64,000 bases of DNA from NCBI GenBank assembly GCA_024696005.1, contig JAILHF010000051.1, forward strand, positions 248,001 through 312,000, given 5' to 3'. Both the position numbers and the translations under genes were made by a program. Under the pieces are notes generated by a model. It was given only the letters and a program-made list of their open reading frames with translations, was not told the DNA's origin and ran no database searches. This document shows, in pieces, positions 28,248-37,637 of the stretch. Source of the DNA: Lachnospiraceae bacterium (GTDB lineage Bacteria; Bacillota; Clostridia; Lachnospirales; Lachnospiraceae). Position 1 is the first letter of the stretch. Each line of letters starts with the position of its first letter.

Positions 28248-31200
28248 TCAGTCTCCGCGACCTGCCAGCCAGCTCGCGTTCTTCTTTTTGATGCGGAACT
28301 TGATGCTCTTTTCGCCGCAGTAGACGCCTTTGCCCCGGATCGTGACCGTGGCCGTCCCGGCTTCTTTGTTGTTTTTATAGCCTGTGATCTCGTAATTCTC
28401 GGGTCCGATCATGATCCCGCTCCGGCTCAGCCTGATCTGCGTTTCACTCAGAATGATCTCGCGTCCCGTATAAATCTGGTCATCGACCGTGCCCTTGGCT
28501 TTGCTGATGTCGGGTTTGCCCACCTTGTAGCGCACACGCACCACACCATTATAATTCCCGATGCCGGCCACAGCAATGTGCAGCGCCGTTCCGGGCGGTA
28601 TGATGTCGTCCTGTGAGATGCCCTCACCTGCAAGGCGCTGCACCTTGCTGCCGCGGCACGTGACATAACAATCCTCGTCATAGCGCCAGAAGATCTTGTT
28701 CGCATCGTAATCCTTTCCGGCAGCCAGACGCTTCCCGTTGTCATCCGTAAGAACGGGTGTGCTCTTATAAATGCCGGCTTTTCCGGGATCGGCTTCCTTG
28801 TCCGCCGCATGGGCATTCACGGTGGAGATGTCCCTCTTTTCGATCGTAAAAGGCATGCGAAGCGTTTTCCCCGCATAGCCGCCTTTCCCGATGATCTGGA
28901 GCGTGGGCGGAGCGGACTCCGTGGCTTTTGCTGCTTTGTCATTCGCCTGGTATTTGACCGTATAATCCACTCCCTGCTCAAGGGTGCGCGTAACACCGCC
29001 CTGCAGGATCGTGACACTGACTCCGGGCTTTACCCCTCCCTTCACGTATTTCACGCTTGCGGGATAAACAACCTTCGCCGTGGAGATGTCGATCTTGCGG
29101 ATACGGAAGATCTTCGAGATCGTTCCTCTGTATCCGGCTTCACCAATTCCCGTCACGGTAAGCTTCCCCGTGCCGGCCTTTACGTTGTTCTTGTAGCTTA
29201 CGGTATAGTGCCTGCCTTCCTCCAGGGCCTTCCCGCTGCTCTTCAGCGTAAGACATGCTTCCGGCCGGATCTCGGCCCCCGTGTAATATGCGTCGGACAA
29301 CGGCTGCAGTACGGCAGCCTTGGAGAGCACCGTGCCGCGGATCTTGAATTTGACGCGGCGCACGCCGCAGCAGCGGTCTCCGATACCTTTCAGGATCAGT
29401 TCTGCCTCTCCGACTCTGTCACCCTTTCGGATCACCGCCTCATAATCCGTGCCTTCCTTCAGTTCCTGCCCCTTGACCTTTACGCTGAGGGCAAGGCTCT
29501 GCCCCTTCGAGTCCTTAAGCTGGGAAAGCTCGTGGTAGCCTTCCTCCAGATAATCCTGCGTCGGGATGCGGCGGACCTTTGCCGCCGACAGATCCAGCAG
29601 TTCACCGACTATGGTCAGCTGCGTCTCCAGGCTGTCACGGAAATTCCCTTTTCCGCTTATGATAAGCTTATAGCTGCCGGGCTCCCGAAGCACCTCGTCG
29701 CAGCTGATGTCATAGTCCTTTCCGGGCACAAGCTTTTTCCCGTTCCATTTCACATTAAGCTTTGCCTCGATCACGGATCCTTTGTATTTCACGCTGACCG
29801 GCTCGCAGCTTGCTTCCGAAACGGAGGCCGGAAGGATCGTGAAATTCCGGTACAGCTTTCCGCTGTAATCCCCTTTGAATTCAAAGAACGCAAAGGCGTT
29901 GCCGGCGTCTTTGTTATCACGGTAACTTAAGTTGTAATCCTTTTTCGAAAGCAGCTTCGTGTGGTCATAGACGCGGAAATCCTTCGGCGTCTGCTTTTTC
30001 CCGTTATAAACAAGCTCCGGGATCGAAGCCGCAGCGACCCAGAGTCCGTCGGGCACATCCTCGGGCGACGCCCACTGGCTGCGGTCTTCCTCACAGATAT
30101 CCCCCCAGCCTTCGCGGATCACATGATACTCTTCGATGAGCGTGGCACTCCGGATGCCGTTCTTGTAGGCTACCGCCTTCAGCACGCAATCCTCCGAAAT
30201 GCTGATCGGCCCGCTGTATTCCGTTGCCACACCAGCGTCCGGCTCGCGGCCGTCAAGCGTATAACGGATGCCTGCATCCGGCGTGGGGGAAGAAAGACGC
30301 ACCTGTGTTCCAGCCGGGACATCCCCGCCGGCAGGAGACGCCTGGGGCTTTCCGACCTGGAGCACCATCCTGACCGAAACCGTGCACTGGTCCGTCAGTC
30401 CGTTGTCTACGGTCTTGATCCGGATCACGGTACTTCCGCTCCCGGCCCCTGTCACCTCACCCTTTTCATTCACTGTCGCGACAAGCGGATTGTCACTGGA
30501 AAGCTTCACGCTGCGGTCGTCCGCATCGGCGGGAAGGACCGTCCATTCGAGCTTGGCACTCTCATCCAGATCCAGCTGCAGGCTTTTGACATTGAGCGAT
30601 ACCGAAACAGGATGAACCACAACGTGCAAAGGATAGCTGTAATTCTCCGTATAGTCGCAGGCCTTTGCCTCGGCCTTTAGCGTGCCGTCTCCCCGCGCCT
30701 TCAGTGCTTTGATGGTCTCGCCCTCGATCACGGCAAGGGAACTGTCCTCCACCTTCCAGGTCGTTGCGGTCTTGGCCAGCCTCACCTGGGCTCCGTCGGG
30801 CTTGTGGCCGTCCACCCTGATCCAGGCGCTGATCCTGGGCAGGGGAACACCCTTCTGGTATTCCAGCTTAAGCTTGCTCCCTCCGGCAGGGTTCGACGCA
30901 AAGCTTGCGCCTTTCACATAATCGTCCACGATGATCATCTCATAGTTCTGCACCTTGTCGGTCTCGGAAGTTACCGCAGAGCTTATGGCTCTGTTCGTAT
31001 ATTCCAGGGCCCAGAAATAATGCCCCTCCATGATCACGCAGCCGATGCCGTAGAAGGCATAGTCCGTCGTCAGGATGTCGTTGGCGCTGGCGGAAAACCA
31101 GCGGTTTACGGCCTCCTCACCCTTGGTCAGTTCGTTGAGCAGAAGCTCCTTGGTCTTCGCATTCCGGATATACGCCGTATAGATCGTGGAAAACTCACTG

Positions 31201-31778
31201 GCATCAGGGCGCACGGTGGAATAGCGTACCGCCGCCTCCGTGGCGCGCTGCATCGCTTTCTCCTCCAGACCGTAGTCATAGCTTAAGGTACGTACCTTCT
31301 GCTCCGTGCGGATCTCGTTCACACGGGCGGCAGCTTTCCTGGCTTGTGTGCGGATGCAGTTTACCGAGACCGTGATGGAATTCTGGCTCTCCGTAAGCCC
31401 CAGTACCTCTTCCCCTGTGGCCTCTGCGAAGCTGCCGTCGCTTTCCGCGGAAAGGATCTCCGCGCCTCCTTCATCCACCGCTTCTTCTCCCTCTGCGGGC
31501 TCCTCGCTTCCCTCGCCCGGAACAGCATCTCCGCCTTCGCCGCTTTGGTCCTCTGCACAGGCATCTCCGCCTTCGCCGTTTTGACCGCCCTCTTCACAGG
31601 CTTCCCCGGCTTCGCCGGCCGGGCTTTCTCCCTCATATGCTTCGTCGCTGCTCTCCGCAGCGGCATAAGCCTCGTCCCCGTCGGCCGCATAGACCTGCGG
31701 CAGCGCAACAAGGTTCATCAGCAGGACCAAAAGCAGAAGTCCCGATACAAAGCGTTGCATCCGTCTGATCGATCTCAT
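28248..31778 (-). CDS. Large secreted CAP-domain protein with Ig-like and MBG-like repeats
   Basis: A 1176-residue exported protein. It has a signal peptide (about 1-31, ending QVYAA), a very acidic Gly/Glu-rich stretch (about 35-125), and a CAP/SCP-like domain at about 138-263 (RVNEIRTEQKVRTLSYDYGLEEKAMQRATEAA split over two helices, then YGIGCVIMEGHYFWALEY). These are followed by a bacterial Ig-like domain (BIG2, about 395-470), a chitobiase-type beta sandwich (about 475-555; YTLDGREPD) and at least five later modules around YKNNxxAGTxxVTIxGxG with KFRI-type ends. Most of the protein probably forms a rod displaying the CAP domain. No sorting motif or C-terminal anchor is seen, so release or non-covalent attachment is likely. 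It starts 16 bp after queA with GGGAGG before ATG. Confidence 0.88.
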   Translation of the reverse strand: MRSIRRMQRFVSGLLLLVLLMNLVALPQVYAADGDEAYAAAESSDEAYEGESPAGEAGEACEEGGQNGEGGDACAEDQSGEGGDAVPGEGSEEPAEGEEAVDEGGAEILSAESDGSFAEATGEEVLGLTESQNSITVSVNCIRTQARKAAARVNEIRTEQKVRTLSYDYGLEEKAMQRATEAAVRYSTVRPDASEFSTIYTAYIRNAKTKELLLNELTKGEEAVNRWFSASANDILTTDYAFYGIGCVIMEGHYFWALEYTNRAISSAVTSETDKVQNYEMIIVDDYVKGASFASNPAGGSKLKLEYQKGVPLPRISAWIRVDGHKPDGAQVRLAKTATTWKVEDSSLAVIEGETIKALKARGDGTLKAEAKACDYTENYSYPLHVVVHPVSVSLNVKSLQLDLDESAKLEWTVLPADADDRSVKLSSDNPLVATVNEKGEVTGAGSGSTVIRIKTVDNGLTDQCTVSVRMVLQVGKPQASPAGGDVPAGTQVRLSSPTPDAGIRYTLDGREPDAGVATEYSGPISISEDCVLKAVAYKNGIRSATLIEEYHVIREGWGDICEEDRSQWASPEDVPDGLWVAAASIPELVYNGKKQTPKDFRVYDHTKLLSKKDYNLSYRDNKDAGNAFAFFEFKGDYSGKLYRNFTILPASVSEASCEPVSVKYKGSVIEAKLNVKWNGKKLVPGKDYDISCDEVLREPGSYKLIISGKGNFRDSLETQLTIVGELLDLSAAKVRRIPTQDYLEEGYHELSQLKDSKGQSLALSVKVKGQELKEGTDYEAVIRKGDRVGEAELILKGIGDRCCGVRRVKFKIRGTVLSKAAVLQPLSDAYYTGAEIRPEACLTLKSSGKALEEGRHYTVSYKNNVKAGTGKLTVTGIGEAGYRGTISKIFRIRKIDISTAKVVYPASVKYVKGGVKPGVSVTILQGGVTRTLEQGVDYTVKYQANDKAAKATESAPPTLQIIGKGGYAGKTLRMPFTIEKRDISTVNAHAADKEADPGKAGIYKSTPVLTDDNGKRLAAGKDYDANKIFWRYDEDCYVTCRGSKVQRLAGEGISQDDIIPPGTALHIAVAGIGNYNGVVRVRYKVGKPDISKAKGTVDDQIYTGREIILSETQIRLSRSGIMIGPENYEITGYKNNKEAGTATVTIRGKGVYCGEKSIKFRIKKKNASWLAGRGD

Positions 31779-31794
31779 GATATCCTCCCGTCAG

Positions 31795-32838
31795 TTAAAT
31801 GATCAGCATGGCATCCCCGAAGGAAAAGAAGCGGTAGCGTTCCCGGATCGCCTCCTCATAAGCAGCCATAACCTTTTCTTTCCCGGCAAATGCCGAAACA
31901 AGCATCAGAAGCGTGGATTCCGGCAGATGGAAATTCGTGATCAGCCCGTCCACAACCTTGAAGCGGTAGCCCGGATAAATGAAGATATCCGTATCCCGGC
32001 TGCCTGCCTTTACCGTCCCGTCCTCTTCGCTCATGCTCTCGAGCGTGCGCACGGAAGTGGTTCCCACACAGACCACACGCCCCCCTGCCCTGCGGCAGGC
32101 ATTGATCCTTTCCGCGGCCTCCGCACTGATCTGGCAGAACTCCGTGTGCATATGATGCTCCAGGATATTCTCCGCCTTGACCGGACGGAAGGTCCCGAGC
32201 CCGACATGCAGGGTCACAAAAACCGTCTCAACTCCGGCTGCGCGGATCTGGTCCAGAAGCTCGGGCGTAAAATGCAGCCCGGCCGTGGGTGCCGCCGCCG
32301 AACCTTCCACCCGCGAATAGACCGTCTGATAACGCTCCCGCTGTTCCCTGGGCAGTTTATGTGTGATATAAGGGGGAAGCGGCATTTCCCCGAGCTTATC
32401 CAGCAGTTCCTCGAAGATCCCTTCGTATTCAAAACGGATCTTCCGGTTTCCCTCCTCGAGGATCTCCGTCACCTCAGCCGTAAGAATCCCGTCGCCAAAA
32501 ACGATCCTGCAGCCGGGTCTCGCCTTTTTCCCGGGACGAACCAGCACCTCATAGCAGCGGTCCTCAAGCCTCTTCAAAAGAAGCACTTCGATCGCGGCGC
32601 CGGTATCCTCCTTTGTCCCGTAAAGCCTGGCCGGGATCACACGGGTGTCGTTCAAAACCAGGCAGTCGCCGGGGCGCAGCGAAGAAAGCACATCCGGGAA
32701 ATGACCGTGTGTCACTTCGCCGCTTGCGCGGTCAAGCTTGAGCAGCCTGGATGCGCTCCTGTCCGGAAGCGGATCCTGTGCGATCAGTTCTTCGGGGAGT
32801 TCGTAATGATAGTCCGATGTTTTCAGCAGATCACTCAT
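31795..32838 (-). CDS. queA: S-adenosylmethionine:tRNA ribosyltransferase-isomerase
   Basis: Transfers and rearranges the ribosyl group of SAM onto 7-aminomethyl-7-deazaguanine in tRNA during queuosine synthesis; 347 residues, normal length. Family motifs: [25 protein letters not shown] at the start, [15 protein letters not shown], the [13 protein letters not shown] motif, [23 protein letters not shown] and [17 protein letters not shown]. The ATG overlaps the stop of the upstream TPR gene (ATGA). Partner genes such as tgt are not in the window. Confidence 0.97.
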
Positions 32839-34277
32839 TGTATTTTGATATCCATCTTCAGTGTCATGGTCTTCAGTTTCATCTCGACGCCCGAAAACTC
32901 GCCGAGGTATTCCCCCATCAGTTCCTTCAGCGCCGAATTATCGACCGTAAGCAGCGTGACTTCCACATGCACCGGAAGCCCGGTCTCACGGTTCACATAT
33001 CTTGTCACATCCATCGTAAGGCTCTCGAGCAGCTTTTTGGTGTTTGCATCCAGCACCCCGCCCGGCAGCTTCAAGCTGTAATCTTTCCCGTCCACCACGC
33101 CGTTTGTCACGGCGCAGGTCTTTCCGTTCCAGTCCGCGTCACTGCCGCTTTCGGGCTGTGAAGCTGCGATCTGCTCATATTCCCTGAGAAAATCCCATAC
33201 TTCCCGCTTCAGCTCGCTGTTTGCTTCCGTCCTGGTCTCGCCGCCGGTCTTGATCAGGATGTCCTTGCCGTTCTGCGAGAGCTCGATCGTTTCCGTCTGC
33301 TCCTGCTTCTTGCCGGCCGCACTCACGCTCACCTTTTCGGTAACGAGCATGTATTCCGAACCGCTGTTTCGCCCGTCATAAGAGAGCTTCAGCTCCACGG
33401 TGGCAGGCACATCTATGCTGATCCCGAAATACGAGGCCGTAAGGCCCAGATCGATCACGGCATCGGCCGAAACAAGCTCCGGCCCCGTCTCTTCCTCTTC
33501 TTCTTCGGGAACGACCATTTTCGCAAGGCCATCCTGCGCGCGGGCATTCTCCGGATCGATCTCGAGGACTTTCCCGTAATAGCCCCGTGCCGCATCCCAG
33601 TCATCCGCATCATATGCTTCGTCACCCAGCTGAAGATAAGATTCGACCAGTTTGTGGCGGAACTGCTCCGTATCGACCTTTTCGTTGAGCGGTTCTGCCA
33701 TCGCCGCCTCGAAAAAAGCTGCCGTCGCTTCGGCATCGCCGCTCTCCATGATCGCGGAACCCAGCTGAAGCTTGGCTCCCGTCCAGCTTGCGGCATCTTC
33801 CCGCATCAGCTCCCCGCTTGTTTTGGGATCATCGATCACGCCCGCAAGCTTTTCTTCGGGAATGGTCTCGAGCCGTTCGACCAGCCCATCCCAGTCTTCC
33901 TTCTTTTCAAGGCGCCTTGCTTCGCTCAGATACGCATTCCAGAGCGCTTCTGCCACATCTTCGTCGCGGCATTCCGAAAGCCCCGTTTCCAGGATCTTTT
34001 GCGCATTTTCATAATCCCGGTCCTGCATGTAGATGTCGCCGAGGGCCAGGTAAGCCGGGACATGAACACTGTCATAATCCAGGATGTCTTCGTAGAGAGC
34101 AATGGCCCGTTCCGTCTTATCGGCCTCCAGGCTTTTTTCGGCAAGGTATTCCCGGATCGCGATGCGGCTGTCATGGTTCGCAAAGCCGAAATACCACACA
34201 CATCCGCCGATCAGGATCAACAGGAACAGGAACAAAAACAGGATGAACTTAACGCCGCTTTTCCTTTTCTCTCTCAA
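32835..34277 (-). CDS. TPR-containing membrane-anchored protein, function unknown
   Basis: A 480-residue protein with a basic start and a hydrophobic segment at about 10-32. LIGGC within it resembles a lipobox, but hydrophobic residues continue after the Cys, so a plain membrane anchor is as likely. TPR-like helices span about 40-235 ([57 protein letters not shown]), then an acidic linker and a C-terminal beta-rich domain (about 270-480) with no family I recognise. The start is TTG 34277, supported by GGAGG 5 nt upstream; no ATG or GTG nearby fits. The gene overlaps mscS by 29 bp and queA by 4 bp. Confidence 0.82.
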
Positions 34278-35211
34278 GGCCGCCTCCGTCTGAATTCTCG
34301 GTTAAAAGATGCACATCCAGCTGCCGGTAAGGGATCTTGATCCCTTCGTTTTCAAAGCGTTCCTTCAGTCTCTCGATATAGCTCCATTTTACGTCGAAAT
34401 AATCCTCGTTCATCACATAGGCCCGAAGTCCCATCGTGACCTGTGACTCGTCCAGCGAATCGACATAGACCGCGATGCCGTCTTCCCTGCGGATGCGCTC
34501 GTCCGCCTCGGCCAGCTCCGTCATGACCTGCTTGGCCTTCCGGATATCCGACTCGTACGAAATCCCGAAATTCAGGATCATGCGGCGTCTGGGCGTATGA
34601 TTGATATTGGTCAGCGACGTGTTCGCCAGGGTACCGTTGGGCAGGACCACGGTCTTTTCATCTATGGTCCGCAATTTGGTGTAGAACAGGCCGATCTCGG
34701 TGACAACACCTTCGTTTCCCTTGTTGTCCTCGATGATGTAATCGCCGATCCGGAAGGGCTTCAATACGAGCAGCAGCACGCCGCCGGTCACGTTTGACAG
34801 GCTGCCCTGCAAAGCCAGGGCGATCGCGACACCCGCACTGCCCAGAACCGCGATCAGCGAGGTAGTCTCAAAACCGAACCAGGACGCGATCCAGATGATC
34901 AGCAGCGCATACAACCCCACATTGAGCATCGAATCCAGAAAGCCCTGTATCCCTGCATCGGCTTTTGCCTTCTGCATGGATTTCTTCACGGCCTTGCGGA
35001 CCAGGCGGATCAGCTTGGTGCCCAGCCAGAACAGAAACAGCGCAACGATCAGCCTTACGCCAAAGCGAAGCAGCTTTCCCGGCAGATCCGAGAAGAAATC
35101 CTTTGCCACGCCGAGCGTATGCGATGCTTCCTCCGAGCTGATCCCGACCGCCTCGAGGATGTCATTGGCCGAAACCGCATGTCCGTTTTCCGAAATGCTG
35201 CACGTGATCAC
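34249..35211 (-). CDS. mscS: Small-conductance mechanosensitive channel (MscS family)
   Basis: A 320-residue osmotic safety channel. It has three membrane segments (about 47-67, 92-112 and 118-150), with the pore helix in VLGSAGVAIALALQGSLSNVTGG followed by VLKPFRIGDYI, the MscS signature, and then a beta domain (EGVVTEIGLFYTKLRTIDEKTVVLPNGTLAN) and alpha/beta vestibule. The start is GTG 35211, which overlaps the stop of the GlgB-like gene as GTGA; upstream sequence is purine-rich but without a strong ribosome site, so coupling is likely. The C-terminal tail is highly charged. Confidence 0.95.
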   Translation of the reverse strand: MITCSISENGHAVSANDILEAVGISSEEASHTLGVAKDFFSDLPGKLLRFGVRLIVALFLFWLGTKLIRLVRKAVKKSMQKAKADAGIQGFLDSMLNVGLYALLIIWIASWFGFETTSLIAVLGSAGVAIALALQGSLSNVTGGVLLLVLKPFRIGDYIIEDNKGNEGVVTEIGLFYTKLRTIDEKTVVLPNGTLANTSLTNINHTPRRRMILNFGISYESDIRKAKQVMTELAEADERIRREDGIAVYVDSLDESQVTMGLRAYVMNEDYFDVKWSYIERLKERFENEGIKIPYRQLDVHLLTENSDGGGLEREKEKRR

Positions 35212-37637
35212 TTTTTCTTCTTCCCTTTCGTTTCCGAGCCGGAGGCTATGGCCTGCTCTGCGGCACGGATCTTGCGCGCGAGTTCCTCTTTCAGGCTCTC
35301 ACGCAGGCGGCTCCGCTCAGCAGCCAGGTCCTTCCTGCGTTCCTCTTCTTCCCGGCGCTTTCCCTCGCGTTCCTCTTCCCTTCGCCTGATCTCGGCTTTT
35401 TCCTCTGCCGTGAAAGGCTGGAAAAGATAGACCTTTGCCGAAAGTGCAGGGAGCACAAGGCGGATGCGGTAATCCCTTCCGTCCGTTTTGTTCCTGCGGG
35501 CCGCGGTTGTTGCTCCGTCCACCACGCCGCCGCTCTCGCTCGAAAAGATCTCCTTGTATTTTCCTTCCCGGTCCACACCGAGAAAATACTTGTCGCGGTC
35601 CACGTTCGCAAAGTTGAACACACATACCAGTGTGCGTCCTTTCTTCAAATCCTGCCTGAGAAATGCCAGAACGTTTTCCTCGGCCCCGTCTTCCTTGAGC
35701 CAGACAAAGCCGTTCTCATCGTTGTCGCAGGCATAAAGCGCGCTCTCCTTTGCGTAAAAGCCGTTGAGGCTCTTCAGATACGCGCGGAACACTTCCTCTT
35801 CCAGTTCCTGTTTGTCACAGGGCATCCGGCGTTCCATGTCCTCAAAAGAGGACAGATTCCCGTATTCCTGCCCTTCAAAGACGGCCCATTTTCCGACATG
35901 CAGGCAGAGATATGCATAAAGCAGCTTCAGTCCTTTCCACTGCTCGGCTTCGTCTCCGTGCATGCGCATCCGGAGTCCCCCCTGACGGAAATTGACATGG
36001 GAAAGGCCCACGGGCAGGAGATAATTCTCACAATACTGGTAAAGCATGCTGCCGACAAGAGCGTGATGATAATTGCGGCGCACGATCGGATCCCTGGAAA
36101 GATAATCGATCAGTTCGCGGACGCAATCCGAATCCGCCGTCAGGTCAAAGCCGAGACCTTCGTCACCCTTTTCCGTCACCTTCGGGTAGGAAGAGCTTCC
36201 GGACGCAATGCTGATCAGGCCGCTTTTCGCCTTGTGGAGCAGTACGTTCATCTCCCGCAGGAACGCAATGGCTTCGAGGTTCTCCACGCCGCCGTAGATA
36301 TTGGGGATCCATTCCCCGGGCGCGCGGTAATAATCCAGATACAGAAGCGACGCAACATCCAGCGTCACAAAGCCGTCCAGGTGATACTCCCGGCTCCAGT
36401 AGTTCAAAACGGAAAGCAGATAGCTCTGTACCTGCGTCTTTCCCAGATCAAACTTGAGCATGCCGGTACGGGGCTCCACGCCTCGTCTCGGATCGGCATA
36501 TTCATACAGAGCGCTGCCGTCAAAGCTGCCGGGGCCGAATTCGACATTGGAGAAATCCCCCGGTGCCCATTCCAGCAACACACCGATGTTCTTTCCGTGC
36601 ATGACATCGACAAACGCCATCAGTTCTTCAGGCGAACCGTAACGGCTGCTCGGCGCAAACAAAAGGCTGCTGTGATAGCCTGCGTCCTGATCTCCCGGGA
36701 ATTCCATGAGCGGCATCAGTTCCACATGCGTATAAGCCATGGAGGAAAGATAATCCGCAAGCTCCGCGACCGCCGTTTTGTCCGAAAGGAAGCCCTCCGG
36801 AAGACGCTCGAGAGAAAGCGCATAGATGTTCAAAGGGGAGACTGACGGATCGTATTTCTTTCTGGCATCCATCCAGCGCTCATCCTTCCATTTGCGGGAC
36901 GGCGCACAGAAAACAGAGTCTGCGGAATGCGGCCCGGCCTGGCGGAAGCTGTAAGGATCGGCCTTGCGCATGCTCACGCCACCCTTCATCAGAACATCGT
37001 AAGCATAATGTTCCCCTTCCTCCAGGCCCGGCACGAACAGTTCAAAGATCCCCGATCCCTCCAGGCGGTTCATGGGGCAGCGCCTGGCGTCCCATTCGTT
37101 AAAATCTCCGACAAGGCTCACGCGGACCGCCTCGGGCGCCCACACCCGGAAGATGCAGCCGCGTTTTCCGCGCAGGGTCTTTTTATGCGCTCCCATGTAG
37201 GTGTATGCCCCGGTCTCGGCACCGGAAGCAAAGCGTGTTTCATCCTCTTCCGAAAGATGCGTCCCGAAACCGTAAAGCTCGGGAAAGTCCCTGGAAATGC
37301 TCTCTTTTTTCTTTTTCTTCTTTCCGTCCTCTTCGGGAACGGGATATTCCGCATGATAACGGTATTCCTTCCGCTCGGCTCCGGGCAGGAGCGCCGCAAA
37401 GAATCCCGCCTCATCCGCAAGCTCCATCGGCACTTCTTCCCTGACGGTCCTTCCCCTGCTTCCTTCGCTGCCTTCGACATAGATCGTCACTTTCCCGGCT
37501 CCCGGGAAAAACGCCTGCACGAGCGTCTGACGCCCCTTCGCATGCGCGCCCAGGAAATCATCCGGGCGGTCACATTCCCCGTAAACCAGTTCTTCGATCT
37601 TTGCCCAGTCCATCAGGGCATACAGTTTTTTATTCAT
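35208..37637 (-). CDS. GlgB-family protein lacking all catalytic residues (GH13 pseudoenzyme)
   Basis: An 809-residue relative of 1,4-alpha-glucan branching enzyme. There are two N-terminal beta-sandwich regions, the second a clear CBM48 (FRVWAPEAVRVSLVGDFNEWD, about 163-183), then a GH13 barrel with the GlgB landmarks GEWIPNIYGGVENLEAIAFLRE and EGQEYG, and a beta C-domain. The last 90 residues are a highly charged coiled-coil tail. Aligned with E. coli GlgB, the nucleophile Asp (RVDAVAS) is Leu (VTLDVAS, L426), the acid/base Glu (AEES) is replaced in ASGS (S479/G480), and the third Asp (SHDE) is Ser (GLSH, S546). The region I His is also lost. It is expected to bind but not process alpha-glucan. 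Start ATG 37637 with AGGAG 8 nt upstream. Confidence 0.85.
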   Translation of the reverse strand: MNKKLYALMDWAKIEELVYGECDRPDDFLGAHAKGRQTLVQAFFPGAGKVTIYVEGSEGSRGRTVREEVPMELADEAGFFAALLPGAERKEYRYHAEYPVPEEDGKKKKKKESISRDFPELYGFGTHLSEEDETRFASGAETGAYTYMGAHKKTLRGKRGCIFRVWAPEAVRVSLVGDFNEWDARRCPMNRLEGSGIFELFVPGLEEGEHYAYDVLMKGGVSMRKADPYSFRQAGPHSADSVFCAPSRKWKDERWMDARKKYDPSVSPLNIYALSLERLPEGFLSDKTAVAELADYLSSMAYTHVELMPLMEFPGDQDAGYHSSLLFAPSSRYGSPEELMAFVDVMHGKNIGVLLEWAPGDFSNVEFGPGSFDGSALYEYADPRRGVEPRTGMLKFDLGKTQVQSYLLSVLNYWSREYHLDGFVTLDVASLLYLDYYRAPGEWIPNIYGGVENLEAIAFLREMNVLLHKAKSGLISIASGSSSYPKVTEKGDEGLGFDLTADSDCVRELIDYLSRDPIVRRNYHHALVGSMLYQYCENYLLPVGLSHVNFRQGGLRMRMHGDEAEQWKGLKLLYAYLCLHVGKWAVFEGQEYGNLSSFEDMERRMPCDKQELEEEVFRAYLKSLNGFYAKESALYACDNDENGFVWLKEDGAEENVLAFLRQDLKKGRTLVCVFNFANVDRDKYFLGVDREGKYKEIFSSESGGVVDGATTAARRNKTDGRDYRIRLVLPALSAKVYLFQPFTAEEKAEIRRREEEREGKRREEEERRKDLAAERSRLRESLKEELARKIRAAEQAIASGSETKGKKKK

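What the first reader, a model, noticed from the sequence alone, without database searches (positions are those of the whole stretch)
35208..37637. GlgB-family pseudoenzyme with all catalytic positions replaced
The protein keeps the fold landmarks of branching enzyme (CBM48, GEWIPN...GGxENLEAI, the late EGQEYG) over its whole length. However, the nucleophile Asp is Leu, the acid/base Glu is Ser/Gly, the transition-state Asp is Ser, and the region I His is Asp. Loss at every site in an intact, well-expressed-looking frame, with a new charged coiled-coil tail, points to selection for a binding or sensing role. Its overlap with mscS (GTGA) suggests joint production with a mechanosensitive channel. 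Alpha-glucan binding, and any link to turgor or glycogen level, are inference.
Basis: partly seen in the sequence, partly recalled or inferred. Interest (0 to 1): 0.75.

Follow-up and report, generated by a model that had tools for sequence, protein, structure and literature searches.

The report
Repeatedly inactivated glycogen-branching enzyme beside MscS
A gut-bacterial protein that looks like a glycogen-branching enzyme has lost its catalytic residues yet is kept under strong selection next to a mechanosensitive channel gene, and similar losses have happened repeatedly in related bacteria, which suggests that the protein has a second, non-catalytic job.

Summary
The 809-aa protein (35208-37637, minus strand) is a full-length GlgB fold in which nucleophile Asp, acid/base Glu, transition-state Asp and region-I His are Leu, Ser, Ser and Asp. 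It is not one decaying copy: all 33 orthologues found in 35 genomes of its genus lack nucleophile and transition-state Asp, and dN/dS of close inactive pairs is 0.03-0.09, as in intact pairs. It belongs to a Lachnospiraceae GlgB clade ('GlgB2', my label) with mscS directly downstream in 146 of 185 loci, against 0 of 42 for other GlgBs. Most GlgB2s are intact, but the best tree shows 11 separate clades with altered triads; all 44 other GlgBs on it are intact, among them 18 of 18 scored paralogues from genomes with altered GlgB2. In altered lineages the barrel evolves faster while the N-terminal domain mostly does not. The charged tail is not new. I propose that GlgB2 also has a non-catalytic docking role (N-domain, CBM48, tail) and that its branching is dispensable where other GlgBs exist. 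Lack of activity, glucan binding, the partner and any link to turgor remain inference.

The parts
35208..37637 (-). glgB2 pseudoenzyme CDS, 809 aa (ATG at 37637; TGA at 35208-35210)
37263..37637 (-). N-terminal domain N1 (residues 1-125; Pfam GlgB_N best stretch 11-100)
36942..37202 (-). CBM48 (residues 146-232), keeps W182 = E. coli W159 (glucan site IV)
35742..36890 (-). degenerate GH13 barrel (residues 250-632)
36570..36572 (-). region I Asp (Ec D335) replaced by E356
36555..36557 (-). region I His (Ec H340) replaced by D361
36360..36362 (-). nucleophile Asp (Ec D405) replaced by L426; the next residue, D427, is D or E in 33 of 33 genus members
36201..36203 (-). acid/base Glu (Ec E458) replaced by S479
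36000..36002 (-). transition-state Asp (Ec D526) replaced by S546
35412..35708 (-). C-terminal all-beta domain (residues 644-742), keeps W646 = E. coli W628 (glucan site VI)
35244..35408 (-). charged C-terminal helix (residues 744-798 helical in the model)
34249..35211 (-). mscS (320 aa), overlaps the glgB2 stop (GTGA); only PF00924 match found in the genome
37681..38922 (-). DUF1015 gene directly upstream, same strand; frequent upstream neighbour of GlgB2

Best explanation
The protein is a non-catalytic GlgB. In Lachnospiraceae the mscS-linked GlgB2 does two jobs: branching alpha-glucan, which other GlgB paralogues in the same cell can also do, and a non-catalytic job carried by its N-terminal domain, CBM48 and charged tail. 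Because branching is redundant, catalytic residues have been lost in many lineages, in the window's case in the ancestor of its genus or in an older ancestor shared with the L104-L141 lineage, while the second job keeps the protein. The second job is most likely that of a docking or scaffold protein: CBM48 and C-domain surfaces hold alpha-glucan (glycogen), and the N-domain plus the C-terminal helix hold a protein partner, the best candidates being the co-produced MscS channel or a glycogen enzyme. Shown here: loss of catalytic residues, purifying selection, recurrence, linkage, intact other GlgBs, faster evolution of the barrel than of the N-domain. Inferred: lack of activity, glucan binding, the identity of the partner.
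For: Catalytic residues: genus 0 of 33 with nucleophile Asp, 0 of 33 with transition-state Asp; outgroup GlgBs 44 of 44 with the D/E/D triad. Selection: dN/dS 0.029-0.089 over the 40 closest inactive pairs printed (several genomes appear under two locus names), 0.032-0.096 over 22 of 25 intact pairs printed, dS being saturated in the other 3. Recurrence: 11 maximal clades with altered triads on the careful IQ-TREE tree (catalytic columns +-4 removed), 14 events if a lost residue cannot return; 11 and 13 on the quick tree; 5 clades and 11 events on FastTree. Specificity: 18 of 102 GlgB2s of the family sample altered, against 0 of 44 outgroup rows and 0 of 29 further GlgBs of a class sample, which were the best-scoring loci. 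Redundancy: 20 genomes with altered GlgB2 searched, 18 gave a full-length other GlgB and all 18 are intact (they are among the 44); the window's genome has two intact GlgBs. Constraint: altered/intact branch-sum ratio 4.56 barrel, 2.52 CBM48, 2.11 C-domain, 1.24 N-domain (48 altered, 23 intact tips); in 8 of 8 altered groups compared, not all independent, the barrel is no better conserved than the N-domain, while intact pairs differ by +0.18 to +0.28. Glucan surfaces: W159 equivalent W in 28, F in 3, N in 2 of 33; W628 equivalent 33 of 33. Linkage: mscS adjacent in 46 of 64 altered and 100 of 121 intact GlgB2 with flank, 0 of 42 outgroup.
Against: No activity or binding was measured. 18 of 64 altered loci with flank lack an adjacent mscS (L026, L055-L059, eight of L131-L141, L152, L188, L198, L215), so MscS is not a general partner. 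The cleft tryptophan W586 is lost in the window, and W628 is invariant in every group and may be structural. N-domain conservation is not uniform: L194 has only 0.29 identity to intact GlgB2s there (intact mean 0.43), and CBM48 is less conserved in the genus (0.48-0.53 against 0.65). In 6 of the 18 altered family-sample GlgB2s only one triad residue differs, so their inactivity is less certain. Several nodes that separate the clades are weak.
Confidence: 0.55

Rival explanations
1. Regulatory subunit: the inactive GlgB2 forms a complex with an active GlgB or with glycogen synthase and tunes glycogen structure, as plant ISA2 does with ISA1; the mscS neighbour is incidental.
For: Intact other GlgBs in 18 of 18 scored genomes; the window genome has one GlgA match and two intact GlgBs; the N-domain, which 26 of 42 outgroup rows on the FastTree do not share by this matching, is the part whose branch lengths are least raised; altered GlgB2s without adjacent mscS keep the gene.
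Against: It does not explain the mscS adjacency in 146 of 185 GlgB2 loci with flank. No complex was tested.
Confidence: 0.25
2. MscS-coupled glycogen or turgor sensor: GlgB2 binds glycogen and MscS and alters channel gating or placement when storage polysaccharide changes.
For: mscS directly downstream in 100 of 121 intact and 46 of 64 altered GlgB2 loci with flank, 0 of 42 outgroup. In the window genome it is the only PF00924 protein; of 35 genus genomes 31 have one match, one has two and three have none. The two genus genomes without GlgB2 (G203, G220) are among those three, though both are incomplete (67% and 81%).
Against: Adjacency is not interaction. 18 of 64 altered loci lack it. In the L055-L059 group four of five genomes have their mscS on another contig and the fifth (G206) has no match, yet all five keep glgB2.
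Confidence: 0.15
3. Changed enzyme: the barrel has gained another activity, perhaps using the acidic residue next to the old nucleophile.
For: Asp or Glu at nucleophile+1 in 33 of 33 genus members against 0 of 129 intact GlgB2 rows; Tyr at position 437, Gly in intact ones, is fixed in the genus sample.
Against: In the window no carboxylate lies within two residues of the acid/base or transition-state sites; the barrel is the part most accelerated; of 15 newly conserved columns only one (518) lies in the barrel.
Confidence: 0.07
4. The reading frame is kept mainly so that mscS is translated (translational coupling), and the protein itself is unimportant.
For: GTGA overlap in the window.
Against: dN/dS 0.03-0.09; N-domain hardly accelerated; gene kept where mscS is not adjacent.
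Confidence: 0.05

Closest known systems
Bacterial GH13 glycogen branching enzyme GlgB (e.g. M. tuberculosis 3k1d, Cyanothece 5gqu, E. coli 1m7x)
   Same: Same fold and domain order N1-CBM48-barrel-C (Pfam; Foldseek TM 0.88 normalised to 3k1d; 29-33% identity in the bacterial matches).
   Different: Nucleophile, acid/base, transition-state Asp, region-I Asp and His and region-II Arg all replaced in the window; charged C-terminal helix; mscS downstream.
Plant isoamylase ISA2 (non-catalytic GH13 paralogue that pairs with ISA1)
   Same: GH13 paralogue with catalytic residues including the nucleophile replaced, kept by selection beside an active paralogue (PMC12510319, abstract and passages).
   Different: An isoamylase, not a branching enzyme; [quoted passage not shown] no complex with an active paralogue is shown here.
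Chlamydial GlgA-GlgB fusions with inactive branching domain
   Same: A bacterial case of a GlgB domain reported as inactive (PMC11046441, passage).
   Different: There inactivation follows gene fusion in a defective pathway; here a free-standing gene is kept under strong constraint in many lineages.
MscS mechanosensitive channel family (PF00924)
   Same: The downstream gene matches the MscS Pfam domains and NCBIfam MscS models, the latter below their curated cut-offs.
   Different: I found no description of a locus with a branching-enzyme homologue in the searches made (listings only).

Membership tests
GlgB branching enzyme (GH13_9) | N1/CBM48/GH13/C-domain architecture and fold | tested here: met
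GlgB branching enzyme (GH13_9) | catalytic Asp-Glu-Asp triad | tested here: not met
   L426/S479/S546
GlgB branching enzyme (GH13_9) | alpha-1,6 branching activity | not testable with these tools
   needs purified protein
Pseudoenzyme (non-catalytic member of an enzyme family) | loss of catalytic residues across orthologues, not in one copy | tested here: met
   33 of 33 genus members lack nucleophile and transition-state Asp
Pseudoenzyme (non-catalytic member of an enzyme family) | purifying selection on the protein | tested here: met
   dN/dS 0.03-0.09
Pseudoenzyme (non-catalytic member of an enzyme family) | absence of catalysis shown biochemically | not testable with these tools
   none
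ISA2-like regulatory subunit | coexistence with an active-looking paralogue | tested here: met
   18 of 18 scored, from 20 genomes searched; two in the window's genome
ISA2-like regulatory subunit | physical complex with the active paralogue | not testable with these tools
   no complex prediction offered
Alpha-glucan-binding protein (branching-enzyme surface sites) | aromatic residues of E. coli sites IV (W159) and VI (W628) kept | tested here: met
   W182 and W646 in the window; genus W28 F3 N2 and W33 of 33
Alpha-glucan-binding protein (branching-enzyme surface sites) | aromatic residue of E. coli site I (W586) kept | tested here: not met
   P in the window; W in 127 of 129 intact GlgB2 rows

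The most novel reading that the evidence does not exclude
The mscS-linked GlgB2 is a glycogen-docked partner of the MscS channel that couples carbon storage to osmotic release, a non-catalytic function old enough to precede the losses, so that catalysis has been discarded repeatedly while the sensor is kept.
Probability: 0.15. Interest if true: 0.9.

Novelty: new variant of a known kind. Interest (0 to 1): 0.7.

Why it matters
Non-catalytic GH13 paralogues are known from plants (ISA2). Here a bacterial branching enzyme has lost catalytic residues in 11 separate clades of one family on the best tree, seen only in the paralogue clade that is linked to mscS, while the N-terminal domain mostly keeps its pace. 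That makes the family a natural experiment on what branching enzymes do besides catalysis, in particular what the N-terminal domain is for. It also warns that a gene annotated as glgB in Lachnospiraceae (the window protein passes TIGR01515) may not encode a branching enzyme, and it offers a testable candidate link between glycogen storage and a mechanosensitive channel in rumen and gut bacteria.

Tried and rejected
Decaying pseudogene: rejected. Alignment shift hiding an intact nucleophile: the three pairwise alignments shown are ungapped there and the family alignment agrees; a new acid at nucleophile+1 exists in 33 of 33 genus members but cannot replace the residues lost in the window. New tail: rejected. 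LKx[ED]L tail motif as a universal feature: 25 of 33 genus, 12 of 129 intact and 3 of 45 other altered rows, so only partly shared. DUF1015 as a clue to function: no solved structure at E <= 1, two papers in the library name it (listing only); in three loci examined it follows serC-like and serA-like genes, so it may belong with serine biosynthesis. Literature: no paper holds glgB+mscS+Lachnospiraceae; one for branching enzyme+pseudoenzyme+glycogen+bacteria, one for pseudoenzyme+glycoside hydrolase+GH13 and four for branching enzyme+mechanosensitive channel+operon+glycogen, all judged unrelated from titles and starts of abstracts only; none; three, of which I read passages of one. Passages of PMC10254366, PMC6243121 (plus its section 15) and PMC11046441 were read.
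Full report
What is there. The minus-strand frame 35208-37637 encodes 809 aa starting at the ATG at 37637. Pfam finds GlgB_N, CBM_48 and Alpha-amylase_C well above their cut-offs, but the catalytic Alpha-amylase model only weakly (22.8 bits, residues 290-356). NCBIfam branching-enzyme models cover residues 128-738 and TIGR01515 is passed. The alignments shown against solved branching enzymes have no gap at the catalytic motifs. A predicted structure (24-sequence alignment, mean pLDDT 84.9, pTM 0.82) has a C-terminal helix at 744-798; its best PDB matches are branching enzymes (3k1d: TM 0.88 normalised by target, 33% identity). For the top-ranked Cyanothece entries the rmsd is about 16 A over the whole chain, so relative domain placement differs there.

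The catalytic residues. With E. coli GlgB as ruler (L272; mapping), the window has E for D335, D for H340, V for R403, L for the nucleophile D405, S for the acid/base E458, L for H525, S for the transition-state D526 and H for E527; Y300 is kept. The role names and E. coli numbering are recalled knowledge of GH13; the columns were found by motif in the intact paralogue L001.

Not one decaying copy. The genus search covered 35 genomes; 33 have an orthologue over nearly the whole length (40-69% identity to the window for the other 32), and the two without are 67% and 81% complete. Nucleophile Asp is present in 0 of 33, transition-state Asp in 0 of 33, acid/base Glu in 14 of 33. Over the 40 closest inactive pairs printed, dN/dS is 0.029-0.089; over the 25 intact pairs printed it is 0.032-0.096 in 22, dS being saturated in 3. 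Several inactive pairs repeat one genome under two locus names.

The family. A search of 200 family genomes, a scan of named contigs (80 loci kept of 103), 100 further stretches and paralogues from 20 genomes with altered GlgB2 gave 265 rows with the window. The window belongs to a Lachnospiraceae clade that I call GlgB2. In 233 de-duplicated loci, the window not counted, an mscS homologue lies within 400 bases downstream on the same strand in 100 of 121 intact and 46 of 64 altered GlgB2 with enough flank, and in 0 of 42 other GlgBs; DUF1015 lies likewise upstream in 57 of 122, 49 of 60 and 0 of 40. In the window's genus 28 of 33 have the adjacent mscS (the window's own pair counted). The 18 altered loci without it are L026, L055-L059, eight of L131-L141, L152, L188, L198 and L215; the homologue search used the window's MscS at E 1e-8, so a divergent one could be missed, though in L134 the two next genes are other enzymes. 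In a class-level sample (196 genomes) the 30 best loci were returned; one (L273) is a GlgB2 already held, and the other 29 (three of them from the window's family) show neither neighbour in their short flanks and all have intact residues. They were the best matches to an intact query, so this sample is biased towards intact ones. The window's genome has one PF00924 protein, the mscS of this locus, one GlgA match and two intact GlgBs (L001; L303).

Repeated loss. In the family sample 18 of 102 GlgB2s have an altered triad; in 6 of these 18 (L026, L146, L160, L194, L198, L211) only one of three residues differs, and for them inactivity is less certain. The sample was taken from the listing, which was cut at about E 1e-124 and made with an inactive query, so the fraction is approximate. 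All 44 outgroup rows are intact. From the 20 genomes with altered GlgB2 that I searched for other GlgBs, 18 gave a full-length one and all 18 are intact (they are among the 44); two gave it in pieces and were not scored. On an IQ-TREE tree of 84 rows and 702 columns, with columns within 4 of the catalytic positions removed, altered GlgB2s form 11 separate clades, or 14 inactivations if a lost residue cannot return. The quick tree gives 11 and 13; FastTree on 226 rows gives 5 clades but 11 inactivations, because tips of its large altered clade keep different residues. Four single altered tips have an intact sister with both supports at 80 or more (L194/L195 100/99, L215/L173 97/89, L152/L006 96/93, L189/L007 98/80). 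Other nodes are weak, such as those of L198 and L146 and the one joining the window's clade to L026/L188 (76/55). The window's genus joins the L104-L141 lineage at 100/100 and all of these lack nucleophile and transition-state Asp, so the loss may predate the genus. The direction, loss rather than gain, is inferred from the intact outgroup.

Where the constraint went. With the tree fixed and branch lengths fitted per domain (71 rows: 48 altered, 23 intact), summed branch length in altered relative to intact lineages is 4.56 for the barrel without motif columns, 2.52 for CBM48, 2.11 for the C-domain and 1.24 for the N-domain; tip numbers alone would give about 2. In the four sister pairs the barrel branch is 2.5 to 4.6 times longer in the altered sister; the ratio is 1.0 to 2.1 for the N-domain, and scattered for CBM48 (1.2 to about 10) and the C-domain (0.6 to 3.9). 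In 8 of 8 altered groups barrel identity does not exceed N-domain identity, against +0.18 to +0.28 in intact pairs matched on total identity. Two of the eight groups share a row and others are sisters, so they are not eight independent cases, and the matching exaggerates the effect because the barrel dominates the total. Against intact GlgB2s the N-domain identity of most altered tips (0.36-0.46) is near the intact mean of 0.43, but L194 has 0.29; the genus is lower in CBM48 (0.48-0.53 against 0.65). Of the E. coli glucan sites (residues from PMC10254366, passages read), the site IV and VI tryptophans are kept (window W182 and W646; genus W 28, F 3, N 2 and W 33 of 33), whereas the site I tryptophan is lost. 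That paper says mutation at sites I, IV, VI and VII lowers activity.

What it most likely does. Catalysis seems dispensable for GlgB2 where other GlgBs exist, yet the protein is not. The part least accelerated is the N-domain, then the C-domain and CBM48; in the genus the tail is also conserved (0.47 mean pairwise identity against 0.18 in the broader intact set, groups of different breadth). I therefore read it as a docking or scaffold protein that holds alpha-glucan and a protein partner. Plant ISA2 is the best functional analogue: a GH13 paralogue without catalytic residues that acts within complexes (PMC12510319, abstract and passages). Whether the partner is MscS or a glycogen enzyme is open; altered lineages without adjacent mscS count against MscS as the only partner.

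Against my reading. Activity, binding and partner are untested; adjacency is weak evidence for interaction; W628 is invariant in every group and may be structural; an acidic residue directly after the lost nucleophile is present in 33 of 33 genus members and unexplained; some tree nodes are weak and some altered members differ at one residue only.

Novelty. Full-text searches found no report of a glgB-mscS locus or of bacterial GlgB pseudoenzymes of this kind (listings, apart from passages of PMC12510319). PMC11046441 mentions inactive branching domains in chlamydial GlgA-GlgB fusions (passage). The library holds only openly licensed papers, so this is no proof of absence. I place it as a new variant of a known kind, the non-catalytic GH13 paralogue, unusual for its repeated origin in one gene neighbourhood.

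Noticed in passing
window 36357-36359 (residue 427): The residue after the lost nucleophile is Asp (28) or Glu (5) in 33 of 33 genus members, Ala or Ser in 129 of 129 intact GlgB2 rows; 14 of 45 other altered rows (some genomes twice) also have Asp or Glu there. Unexplained.
   Followed up: partly
L070, L104, L134 (upstream flanks): Order serC-like aminotransferase, serA-like dehydrogenase, DUF1015, glgB2 in three loci, so DUF1015 may belong with serine biosynthesis.
   Followed up: partly
L303:1036-2916: A third GlgB-type protein (626 aa) of the window's genome with intact catalytic residues and a weak GlgB_N match.
   Followed up: partly
L112, L113: GlgB2s with intact triad but region-I His to Gln and the Glu after the transition-state Asp to Asn, possibly an early stage of loss.
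   Followed up: no
window 32835-34277: TPR protein directly downstream of mscS, overlapping its end; a homologue lies downstream in several genus members.
   Followed up: no
window 28248-31778: Large protein with CAP, Big_2 and chitobiase C-terminal domain matches.
   Followed up: no
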